Shown here piece by piece: positions 53,149-55,706 of a DNA stretch of 64,000 nt. Origin of the DNA: Bacteroidia bacterium. GTDB taxonomy: Bacteria > Bacteroidota > Bacteroidia > UKL13-3. The notes under the pieces were generated by a model. It did not search any database and had not been told where the DNA came from. It was given only the letters and a program-made list of their open reading frames with translations. Position numbers and translations under genes: made by a program. Each line of letters starts with the position of its first letter. Positions within the stretch are counted from its first letter, which is position 1. Location: contig JALONP010000004.1 in NCBI GenBank assembly GCA_025454875.1, positions 71,484 to 135,483 on the forward strand, given 5' to 3'.

Positions 53149-53490
53149 TTAAGCATTCAATGCCTCCCAATATTCAACCGCCCTGCGTGTGTGCGGAATT
53201 ACAATGGTTCCGCCAACGATATTGGCAACAGCAAATATTTCAAACAGTTGTGGTGTGGTTACGCCTAATTCGTGGCATTTTCCTAAATGATATTTTACGC
53301 AATCATCGCAACGTAAAACCATGCTCGCAACCAAGCCAAGCATTTCTTTTGTTTGAGCAGAAAGCGCTCCTTCTTCGTAAGTATTGGTATCAAGGTTAAA
53401 CAATCTTTTTAATACTAGGTTGTCGGCAGCCATCATTTTATCGTTCATGCGACTCCGGTAGTCGTTAAATTCGGTTACCAAATCAGTCAT
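53149..53490 (-). CDS. AhpD-like/carboxymuconolactone decarboxylase-family protein
   Basis: 113 residues. The CMD fold has the active-site Cys-x-x-Cys motif RCDDCVKYHLGKCHELG near residue 60, which matches the alkylhydroperoxidase AhpD group (peroxidase activity with a dithiol). It overlaps the toxin stop by 8 bp and must be translated from the toxin-antitoxin message. There is no alkyl hydroperoxide reductase gene nearby. Confidence 0.87.
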   Translation of the reverse strand: MTDLVTEFNDYRSRMNDKMMAADNLVLKRLFNLDTNTYEEGALSAQTKEMLGLVASMVLRCDDCVKYHLGKCHELGVTTPQLFEIFAVANIVGGTIVIPHTRRAVEYWEALNA

Positions 53491-53806
53491 TTCTTGCCTT
53501 TTTAATTTTTACTTTTTTCAATTTAGGATTGCTACGTGTGTCAATAAATGTAAGCAGATAAACTTGCTTTAATGATTCATTTATCTCATAAATCAAAAGA
53601 TTGTGCTTGGATATTATAACCTCAAACACATTTTGTTTTTTAGAAAAGCGAAATAAATATGGAGACCTTTCAAGTAGAGAGAGAATCTCATTGGTTTTTT
53701 CAAGAAAGTTAAAAATATCTGACTCATACCAATTATCATTTAGGTACTCAATAATCTTATCATAAACACGAGCTGACTCAGAAGACCAAATTATTTGGTA
53801 AGCCAT
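53483..53806 (-). CDS. RelE/ParE-family toxin
   Basis: 107 residues with the RelE/ParE form: YQIIWSSESARVYDKIIEYL at the N-terminus, a basic middle and a C-terminal VYLLTFIDTRSNPKLKKVK. Toxins of this fold either cleave ribosome-bound mRNA or poison gyrase. It overlaps the antitoxin gene by 16 bp and the AhpD-like gene by 8 bp, all in the same direction. The family is reasonably certain; the target is not known. Confidence 0.8.
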   Translation of the reverse strand: MAYQIIWSSESARVYDKIIEYLNDNWYESDIFNFLEKTNEILSLLERSPYLFRFSKKQNVFEVIISKHNLLIYEINESLKQVYLLTFIDTRSNPKLKKVKIKKARND

Positions 53807-54024
53807 TTTTTATATTTAGCCATTACTTGTTTAGTAGTTTTAATTTTACCTGCTTTTATGTCGCTTCGCCCTTTTAAAGCACTTTCTCGTTGTTCATCTG
53901 TAAGCTCATCCCAAAAATCCTCTTCCGAAGCAGATAATATTGCTTCGACTCTTTTTAGAAGAGTCTTATTTTTTGAACTTAAAACCTGTTGAGCAAGTTT
54001 TACTTTTAATTGATTTGACTGCAT
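53791..54024 (-). CDS. antitoxin partner of the RelE/ParE-type toxin
   Basis: 77 residues from the ATG at 54024 (MQSNQLKVKLAQQVLSSKNK). The sequence is helical and charged, with SASEEDFWDELTDEQRESA in the middle and KAGKIKTTKQVMAKYKKW near the end, like the short helical antitoxins that precede ParE/RelE toxins in Bacteroidota. A complete promoter (TTTG-N19-TATATTTG) sits 3 bp before the ATG, so the mRNA is likely leaderless. The fold is inferred from size, position and composition. Confidence 0.75.
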   Translation of the reverse strand: MQSNQLKVKLAQQVLSSKNKTLLKRVEAILSASEEDFWDELTDEQRESALKGRSDIKAGKIKTTKQVMAKYKKWLTK

Positions 54025-54027
54025 AAT

Positions 54028-54058
54028 CAAATATACATTTAAACCAGTTTTTCGCAAA
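54028..54058 (-). promoter_or_regulatory. toxin-antitoxin promoter (TTTG-N19-TAnnTTTG)
   Basis: On the minus strand, TTTG (54058-54055), 19 bp and TATATTTG (54035-54028) form the best two-part Bacteroidota promoter in the window. The ATG begins 3 bp later, so a start 4 bp after the box would fall on the A of the ATG. The -33 element lies in the end of gpsA. Confidence 0.6.
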
Positions 54059-55064
54059 GTTGCTGAATCGCCTTTTTTACAGGCTCGCCTTTGTAAATGA
54101 TATTGTAAACAGCCTCAGCAATTGGCATGTCTACGTGTAATTGTTCTTGGTTGAGTTCATACATACTTTTGGTAGCATAAAACCCTTCAGCCACCATGTT
54201 CATTTCCAATTGTGCCGACTTCACGGAATAGCCTTTACCAAGCATGTTTCCAAAAGTGCGGTTACGTGAATGTTGCGAATAAGCTGTAACCAATAAATCT
54301 CCTAAATAAGCTGAGTGGTTAATTTCGCGTGGATGTGCGTGTACCTTGTACAAAAAGGCTTCCATCTCGCGAATGGAATTACTGATTAAAACCGCTTGAA
54401 AATTATCGCCATAACCAATGCCATGGCAAATTCCACTTGCTACTGCATAAATATTTTTAAGTACAGCACCATACTCCGTTCCAGTAATATCATTTGAAAT
54501 GATTGTTTTGATAAACCTGCATTGCAACATAGCTGCAAAGGCAACCGCTGCTTGCTCTGTTAACGAAGCAATAGTTAAATATGACAACTTCTCGGCTGCT
54601 ACTTCTTCTGCATGGCAAGGACCACTAATTACCATCATCCTTTCATGAGGAATGTCAAAATCACTCATTAAGTAATCAGCTACAATTTGTTTGCTGTGCG
54701 GTAATAATCCCTTAATTGCAGATACAATCCACTTGCCTTGCAACGCAGTAGCATTAAGAGGTGATAATGCCTCTTTTAAAAACGCGGATGGAATAGCTAA
54801 TACAATTAAGTCGGCATGAAGAACTGCATCCTGAATATTGCTCGTTACCTTTACAAGCTCTGGATGAATTTCAACAGAACTGATATAACGCGGGTTGTGT
54901 TTTTGTGTACGAATATAAGAAGCGGTTTCTTCATCGCGCACCCACCAAAACAACGATTCTATTGCCTCAGGATGGTTGCGCTTGTGTTCACTTACGATTT
55001 TGGTAAGGGCTGTACCCCAGCTACCTCCTCCCAACACTGCAATCTTTTTTATTGGTTGATCCAT
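54039..55064 (-). CDS. gpsA: glycerol-3-phosphate dehydrogenase [NAD(P)+]
   Basis: 341 residues. The Rossmann motif KIAVLGGGSWGTALTKIV is at the N-terminus, KGLLPHSKQIV and SGPCHAEEVA (about residue 143) follow, and NIYAVASGICHGIGYGDN near residue 200 includes the catalytic region. It makes sn-glycerol-3-phosphate from dihydroxyacetone phosphate for phospholipids. The toxin-antitoxin operon promoter overlaps its 3' end. Confidence 0.97.
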   Translation of the reverse strand: MDQPIKKIAVLGGGSWGTALTKIVSEHKRNHPEAIESLFWWVRDEETASYIRTQKHNPRYISSVEIHPELVKVTSNIQDAVLHADLIVLAIPSAFLKEALSPLNATALQGKWIVSAIKGLLPHSKQIVADYLMSDFDIPHERMMVISGPCHAEEVAAEKLSYLTIASLTEQAAVAFAAMLQCRFIKTIISNDITGTEYGAVLKNIYAVASGICHGIGYGDNFQAVLISNSIREMEAFLYKVHAHPREINHSAYLGDLLVTAYSQHSRNRTFGNMLGKGYSVKSAQLEMNMVAEGFYATKSMYELNQEQLHVDMPIAEAVYNIIYKGEPVKKAIQQLCEKLV

Positions 55065-55142: not shown

Positions 55143-55706
55143 TTATATTACCATGGCTACTAATACAAGCCATAAAACCAAACCAACCACACCCAAAATA
55201 ACCCCTGCAATGGCCAACCCTCGATAATCTGATTTAATTCCAATGGCACTGAAAATAATTCCGAGTGTACAAAACAATATTGGGAAGAAGAAAAGCCCAA
55301 CAAGCGAAAAAATAAATCCTGCAATTGCGAAACCATTCTGACTTTGAGTTTTAGACTTCTTTTGTTTCTTTTCAACTTGCTTTTCTTGCTTCGGTTTAGC
55401 TACTTCCTCCTTCCATATTTGTTCGTTTTCAATGGGAGCAGAAGGCCCGGCCGAAAGCTGTTCGGCAGGTAATGCAGCACTTGGGTTATTGTAATCTGCA
55501 CTTGCTGTTGCCGTATCGAGTATTGGTGTTTCACTGGCTGTGGCAACTTCCTTTTGTTGCTTTGCAACTTTGGATTTTGTTGGCTTACTGGCTTGTGCCA
55601 ATTGTTCTTCTTTGTCTACGCGTACTTTTTTACGAAAGGCAAAGCGTTTTTCGGAACAAGCACTTAATAATACTAATGATAAAAGGATTAGATACAGGTT
55701 TTTCAT
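55143..55706 (-). CDS. lipoprotein with a C-terminal DUF4190-like two-helix domain
   Basis: 187 residues. The N-terminus has a lipobox (LLSACSEKRFAF). A low-complexity, Lys/Glu/Ala-rich linker (about 25-125) is followed by two hydrophobic helices with GFAIAGFIFSLVGLFFFPILF and GLAIAGVILGVVGLVLWLV, the DUF4190-like pattern of small membrane proteins. Bacteroidota often have this arrangement. Function is unknown. Confidence 0.8.
   Translation of the reverse strand: MKNLYLILLSLVLLSACSEKRFAFRKKVRVDKEEQLAQASKPTKSKVAKQQKEVATASETPILDTATASADYNNPSAALPAEQLSAGPSAPIENEQIWKEEVAKPKQEKQVEKKQKKSKTQSQNGFAIAGFIFSLVGLFFFPILFCTLGIIFSAIGIKSDYRGLAIAGVILGVVGLVLWLVLVAMVI

What the first reader, a model, noticed from the sequence alone, without database searches (positions are those of the whole stretch)
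53149..54024. AhpD-like gene locked into a toxin-antitoxin operon
Antitoxin, RelE/ParE toxin and a C-x-x-C AhpD-like gene overlap by 16 and 8 bp in one unit driven by a strong two-part promoter. The third gene should be translated from the toxin message. This could be a third element of the module (redox control of the toxin?), or a neighbour whose promoter was captured.
Basis: partly seen in the sequence, partly recalled or inferred. Interest (0 to 1): 0.55.

Follow-up and report, generated by a model that had tools for sequence, protein, structure and literature searches.

The report
Toxin-antitoxin pair inserted between operon genes
A small bacterial toxin-antitoxin pair sits so tightly between two neighbouring genes that reading frames overlap; comparison with relatives suggests the AhpD-like gene was there first and is a bystander, an event of a kind already known from other bacteria.

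Summary
In detail: antitoxin (53791-54024), ParE/RelE-fold toxin (53483-53806) and a CxxC AhpD/CMD gene (53149-53490) lie on the minus strand, overlapping by 16 and 8 bp, behind a consensus Bacteroidetes promoter. But ahpD does not look like a third component. In 6 of 6 genomes of a related genus where both genes were found, ahpD follows gpsA directly (4-6 bp gap) without a toxin-antitoxin pair. In another genus (2 of 2) a PKD-domain gene of 907-941 codons fills the same slot. In the one congener held, an antitoxin homologue (50% identity) follows gpsA, then an IS4-transposase remnant; toxin and ahpD are missing there. Among 103 distinct toxin ORFs and 71 distinct CMD ORFs collected with about 1.5 kb flanks, the two meet only at this locus. 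The toxin runs 8 codons past the point where 15 of 19 aligned relatives stop (3 stop earlier, 1 one residue later), into the ahpD start. Best reading: a type II module inserted into a gpsA-ahpD pair before the two congeners split; ahpD is now probably co-transcribed with it, perhaps translationally coupled. This repeats described cases (mazEF in relA-mazG, yafNO in dinB-yafP, higBA before higX). No evidence was found for redox control of the toxin.

The parts
54039..55064 (-). gpsA, NAD(P)H-dependent glycerol-3-phosphate dehydrogenase; ancestral upstream partner
   Evidence: Pfam PF07479, PF01210 and NCBIfam NF000942; matches in 94 of 97 relatives
54028..54058 (-). Bacteroidetes-type promoter match TTTG-N19-TATATTTG (-33/-7); the -33 part lies in the gpsA end, the -7 part in the 14-bp gap
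   Evidence: consensus seen in passages of PMC6847099 and PMC9723704
53791..54024 (-). antitoxin, 77 aa, RelB/ParD-like only by weak score and by position
   Evidence: NCBIfam NF050811 E 0.15, far under its cut-off; homologues in 31 of 97 relatives; alignment A2
53483..53806 (-). toxin, ParE/RelE superfamily, 107 aa; residues 100-107 are an extension into the ahpD start
   Evidence: fold match to PaaA2-ParE2 toxin, TM 0.76/0.86, Z 13.2; 16 of 20 alignment members match PF05016, the window protein itself does not; C-terminal ends counted
53149..53490 (-). AhpD-like / CMD protein, 113 aa, E-x11-C-x2-C-x3-H; older tail gene behind gpsA
   Evidence: PF02627 55.2 bits against cut-off 23; TIGR00778; PDB 1vke E 2.2e-30; gpsA-ahpD adjacency in relatives

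Best explanation
A two-gene type II toxin-antitoxin module of the ParE/RelE superfamily has inserted into the few bases between gpsA and the AhpD-like gene ahpD. gpsA and ahpD were already neighbours on one strand in the common ancestor of this genus and its sister genera (shown by relatives; the ancestry itself is inferred). The module brought its own -7 box; the -33 box lies in the end of gpsA. ahpD now lies downstream of the toxin on what is probably a gpsA-antitoxin-toxin-ahpD transcript plus a shorter one from the module's promoter (inferred, no RNA data). The toxin frame runs 8 codons past its family's usual end and stops inside the ahpD start (ATGACTGA), so ribosomes ending the toxin could re-initiate on ahpD (inferred). 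ahpD keeps its ancestral protein and presumably its own peroxidase-like job, with expression now partly tied to the module's autoregulation; it is not needed for the module as such, since the relatives of the pair examined carry no such gene nearby.
For: gpsA followed directly by ahpD, 4-6 bp gap, no toxin-antitoxin pair, in G002, G015, G024, G032, G037 and G044, 6 of 6 genomes of genus g2 in which both were found (9 g2 genomes searched; G041 has gpsA but no ahpD orthologue; in G047 and G049 neither was found). The same slot holds a 907- or 941-aa ORF with a PKD-domain match in G021 and G010, 2 of 2 of genus g10, ahpD following by 3 bp. In the congener G001 an antitoxin homologue (50% identity) starts 18 bp after gpsA, behind a TATCTTTG box, followed by the first third of an IS4 transposase; an IS30 transposase lies about 2.2 kb further; no ahpD at E<=0.001 and no toxin there. 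Toxin and CMD ORFs meet only at this place. Toxin 29.0% and antitoxin 32.1% GC against 40.4% gpsA and 41.5% ahpD. 15 of 19 aligned toxin relatives stop at the residue aligned with V99, 3 stop 2-3 residues earlier, 1 one residue later; the window toxin goes on for 8. Elsewhere ahpD sits behind unrelated genes: of 22 upstream proteins printed, 12 resemble the O6-methylguanine methyltransferase-like protein (2 tested, PF01035) and 5 resemble TatC (1 tested, PF00902).
Against: No target-site duplication was found around the pair, so insertion is inferred from relatives only. The ahpD protein tree is too poorly resolved to show vertical descent, and the window's ahpD is slightly closer to orthologues outside its clade (85-86% in G280, G028) than to g2 and g10 (76-83%). 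The clade of g1, g2, g9 and g10 in the gpsA tree has 88/92 support, below the 95/80 mark, and g9 (2 genomes) has gpsA but no ahpD. The antitoxin's GC lies inside the range of 39 large window ORFs picked by hand (31.4-43.5%); only the toxin lies below it. Only one congener was available. The insert could have removed some original spacer, so the exact edges are unknown.
Confidence: 0.87

Rival explanations
1. ahpD is a real third component of the module, for example a redox-active modulator or sensor that acts on toxin or antitoxin.
For: Tight 8-bp overlap, same strand, conserved CxxC motif. In G001 the toxin and ahpD are both absent from the slot.
Against: No other toxin ORF of 103 distinct ones collected has a CMD gene in its fetched flank, and no other CMD ORF of 71 has such a toxin or antitoxin. 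0 of 12 other genomes with both proteins have them on one contig. ahpD occurs without the module in 6 of 6 g2 genomes.
Confidence: 0.04
2. Module and ahpD came in together as one unit behind gpsA, or ahpD was gained after the module.
For: The window's ahpD is marginally closer to orthologues outside the clade than to g2 or g10.
Against: ahpD lies behind gpsA in g2 and, past one other gene, in g10, without any module, so a joint arrival needs the same place to be hit independently. ahpD base composition (41.5% GC) is like gpsA's and unlike the pair's.
Confidence: 0.08
3. The arrangement is an assembly artefact of a metagenome bin.
For: The genome has 37 contigs; reads were not available.
Against: The locus lies well inside a 140,898-base contig, and the congener G001, one contig, has the antitoxin homologue behind gpsA at the same place.
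Confidence: 0.01

Closest known systems
mazEF in relA-mazG, yafNO in dinB-yafP, parDE in relA-mazG of Salmonella, ccd in folA-apaH (passages of review PMC7167474)
   Same: A type II module inserted in the intercistronic gap of a housekeeping operon that is intact without it in other strains; the same slot takes different inserts (here also a PKD-domain gene in g10).
   Different: Other host operon (gpsA-ahpD), a Bacteroidia host, and a frame overlap with the downstream gene.
higBA-higX of Caulobacter crescentus (passages of PMC13384398)
   Same: A gene close behind a module looked like a third component, but proved older and with a main function of its own; the module is the late arrival, and its promoter changed control of the older gene.
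   Different: higX is a LytTR-family transcription factor that can act on the module's promoter and lies 42 bp downstream; here the downstream gene is AhpD-like and overlaps the toxin by 8 bp; nothing was tested at the bench here.
PaaA2-ParE2 of Escherichia coli O157 (PDB 5czf, 5cw7)
   Same: Closest solved fold to the modelled toxin (TM 0.76/0.86, Z 13.2, rmsd 2.0 over 91 residues).
   Different: 16% sequence identity; that system has a regulator, PaaR2, as third gene (recalled), not an AhpD-like gene.
Thermotoga maritima CMD-family protein, PDB 1vke and 1p8c
   Same: Nearest solved relative of the AhpD-like protein, E 2.2e-30 over 105 residues, same CDDC.
   Different: No toxin-antitoxin link is known to me for it (recalled; its neighbourhood was not examined).

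Membership tests
Type II toxin-antitoxin module, RelE/ParE superfamily | small toxin with the RelE/ParE (BECR) fold | tested here: met
   AlphaFold2 model, mean pLDDT 89.1; best PDB matches are ParE/RelE toxins. By sequence the window toxin itself reaches no Pfam or NCBIfam family; 16 of 20 alignment members reach PF05016 at E<=0.01.
Type II toxin-antitoxin module, RelE/ParE superfamily | cognate antitoxin gene adjacent, with conserved co-occurrence | tested here: met
   Antitoxin homologues lie beside toxin homologues in many of the fetched loci, e.g. L032-L039.
Type II toxin-antitoxin module, RelE/ParE superfamily | toxin activity neutralised by the antitoxin; autoregulation | not testable with these tools
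   Needs expression and DNA-binding tests.
AhpD-like / carboxymuconolactone decarboxylase family (PF02627) | CMD domain above the curated score, with C-x-x-C | tested here: met
   PF02627 55.2 bits against 23; TIGR00778 32.3 bits against 27.8; motif in 50 of 50 rows. That E-x11-C-x2-C-x3-H equals the catalytic set of mycobacterial AhpD is recalled.
AhpD-like / carboxymuconolactone decarboxylase family (PF02627) | alkyl hydroperoxidase activity | not testable with these tools
Three-component toxin-antitoxin system | third gene conserved with the pair across genomes | tested here: not met
   Only at this place among 103 distinct toxin ORFs with flanks of about 1.5 kb, some cut by contig ends.
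Three-component toxin-antitoxin system | third protein acts on toxin, antitoxin or their promoter | not testable with these tools
   Bench test needed.
Type II module inserted in an operon's intercistronic gap | relatives have the two flanking genes directly adjacent (empty site) | tested here: met
   6 of 6 g2 genomes with both genes.

The most novel reading that the evidence does not exclude
The insertion has made a new regulatory circuit: the module's autoregulated promoter and the toxin-ahpD stop-start overlap make output of a peroxidase-like protein follow toxin derepression, so that a stress that frees the toxin also raises an antioxidant protein, and loss of the module would cut ahpD expression (which would help fix the module in the genome).
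Probability: 0.1. Interest if true: 0.45.

Novelty: new member of a known kind. Interest (0 to 1): 0.22.

Why it matters
It shows, with an empty site in sister species, another filled slot, and a decayed copy in the congener, how a toxin-antitoxin module can drop into an operon and entangle its frames with an older gene. It warns against calling a tightly overlapping downstream gene a third component without checking relatives. If expression proves coupled, it is a natural test of whether modules persist because they take over the expression of the gene behind them.

Tried and rejected
Third-component reading: looked for CMD genes near toxin and antitoxin homologues and for toxins near CMD genes with profiles; only the window's own place came up.

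Sequence-only naming of the toxin and antitoxin: no Pfam, NCBIfam, PADLOC or PDB-sequence family for the toxin, except chance-level matches; solved by fold prediction. Whether the toxin hits gyrase or mRNA was not decided; a passage in PMC11980606 says this is hard to predict from the shared fold.

Target-site duplication at the edges: none found; the 18-nt direct repeat (53552-53569 and 53928-53945) lies inside toxin and antitoxin genes, not at the edges.

A private ahpD promoter: no exact TAnnTTTG within 150 bp upstream in the window; 14 of 65 distinct orthologues elsewhere have one, and 3 of 6 in g2 have one 133 bp upstream, inside gpsA, so a weak or non-consensus promoter is not excluded.

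Vertical descent of ahpD: the protein tree of 50 rows was unresolved around the window's gene.

Literature: 0 papers held all of toxin-antitoxin, third gene, operon and AhpD; 6 held carboxymuconolactone decarboxylase, toxin-antitoxin, operon and RelE, of which I saw only the listing; (9 papers with 4 of 5 terms, 8 listed) gave nothing on the point in the listing.

Dropped rows: toxin homologues that were broken, cut or repeated (for example L038, L040, L046, L054, L055, L061, and L044 and L045, which nearly repeat L043) were left out of alignment A1, which has 19 relatives. Of the toxin matches listed, 40 extra neighbourhoods were fetched besides the automatic loci; the rest, and those the tool did not list, were not examined.

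Full report
Observation. The three ORFs, their strand, and the 16- and 8-bp overlaps are as described. The promoter match TTTG-N19-TATATTTG lies at 54058-54028 and is the only one of its form on the minus strand of the window. With the -7 box at -12 to -5 (passages of PMC9723704 and PMC6847099) the start of transcription would fall on the antitoxin start codon, so a transcript from it would be leaderless at best. Sites at -13 in G001 and L061 imply about one leader base; many more distant relatives have the box at -22 to -30.

What the parts are. The third gene is a CMD/AhpD-like protein: PF02627 55.2 bits against a cut-off of 23, TIGR00778 above its cut-off, closest solved relatives 1vke and 1p8c. 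The toxin matches no family by its own sequence, but 16 of 20 alignment members match PF05016, and the AlphaFold2 model (mean pLDDT 89.1, pTM 0.77) matches the ParE2 toxin of PaaA2-ParE2 (TM 0.76/0.86, E 6.0e-06; Z 13.2, rmsd 2.0 over 91 residues). The antitoxin is known by position, homologues (31 of 97 relatives) and a weak RelB/ParD score (E 0.15).

Relatives. ahpD was found in 50 of 97 relatives at E<=0.001, a few of these only distant CMD proteins; toxin homologues in 33 of 97. Thirteen genomes have both, the window's own included; in the other 12 the two are never on one contig. Profiles run over 242 fetched loci found 103 distinct toxin ORFs and 71 distinct CMD ORFs, and both together only at the window's own place, which occurs in 5 overlapping loci. 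The flanks were about 1.5 kb and some were cut by contig ends.

The slot. In genus g2, 9 genomes were searched; 6 have gpsA and the ahpD orthologue, and in 6 of 6 ahpD starts 4-6 bp after the gpsA stop with no module. In genus g10 (2 of 2) a 907- or 941-aa ORF with a PKD-domain match stands between gpsA and ahpD, 3 bp before ahpD. In G001, the only congener held and a single contig, an antitoxin homologue with 50% identity starts 18 bp after gpsA; behind it lies an ORF matching positions 3-118 of the 332-position IS4 transposase model, and about 2.2 kb further an IS30 transposase. G001 has no ahpD match, and its toxin homologue lies elsewhere, beside another antitoxin. A gpsA tree of 23 rows puts g1, g2, g9 and g10 together with 88/92 support. 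Both g9 genomes and the outgroup G007 lack ahpD.

Edges. 15 of 19 aligned toxin relatives stop at the residue aligned with V99 of the window toxin, 3 stop 2-3 residues earlier and 1 stops one residue later; the window toxin continues for 8 residues and stops inside the start of ahpD. The ahpD protein keeps its native length at the N-terminus compared with g2. The pair is A+T-rich (29.0% and 32.1% GC) beside gpsA (40.4%) and ahpD (41.5%); among 39 large window ORFs chosen by hand the range is 31.4-43.5%, so only the toxin is outside it. No target-site duplication was found.

ahpD elsewhere. In other genera ahpD also tends to sit close behind an unrelated gene. Of 22 upstream proteins printed, 12 look like one 110-116-aa protein (2 tested: PF01035, O6-methylguanine methyltransferase DNA-binding domain) and 5 like TatC (1 tested: PF00902). 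So lying as a tail gene behind an unrelated gene is this gene's habit, not a sign of partnership.

Reading. The simplest account is insertion of a complete type II module between gpsA and ahpD before G000 and G001 split, followed in G001 by loss of toxin and ahpD with insertion-sequence activity. Shown: gene order, empty slot, second filler, remnant in the congener, lack of recurrence. Inferred: direction and time of insertion, co-transcription, coupling. Against it: unresolved ahpD tree, slightly closer ahpD outside the clade, moderate clade support, one congener only.

Known kind. A review describes the same pattern: relA-mazG and dinB-yafP are undisturbed two-gene operons in strains without mazEF or yafNO, and a parDE can occupy the relA-mazG gap (passages of PMC7167474). 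In Caulobacter, higBA is a recent arrival upstream of an older gene, higX, first suspected to be a third component, whose main function proved independent (passages of PMC13384398). The present case is a new member of that kind.

Noticed in passing
window 54024-54035; L063 (G001) and L061 upstream of the antitoxin: The -7 box ends 3 bp (window) or 5 bp (G001, L061) before the antitoxin ATG, so transcription would start at or next to the start codon; many more distant relatives have it 22-30 bp upstream. Leaderless antitoxin messages may mark this subgroup.
   Followed up: partly
L002, L004, L015, L220, L225, L234 and others, upstream of ahpD: ahpD orthologues often lie 3-40 bp behind an O6-methylguanine methyltransferase-like or a TatC gene: the same small gene trails different unrelated genes in different genera.
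   Followed up: partly
L124:11835-15692 (G001 behind gpsA): Antitoxin homologue with an open frame but no toxin behind it, an IS4 transposase remnant and an IS30 transposase: an orphaned antitoxin in the congener.
   Followed up: partly
L040 (G028:C8): Two toxin-like stretches lie next to each other, at least one of them interrupted in frame.
   Followed up: no
window 53552-53569 and 53928-53945: An 18-nt direct repeat (89%) shared by the toxin and antitoxin genes; may be chance.
   Followed up: no
L131:3114-4384 (G032): Two tandem copies of the small lipoprotein-like gene upstream of gpsA, both matching window 55143-55706.
   Followed up: no
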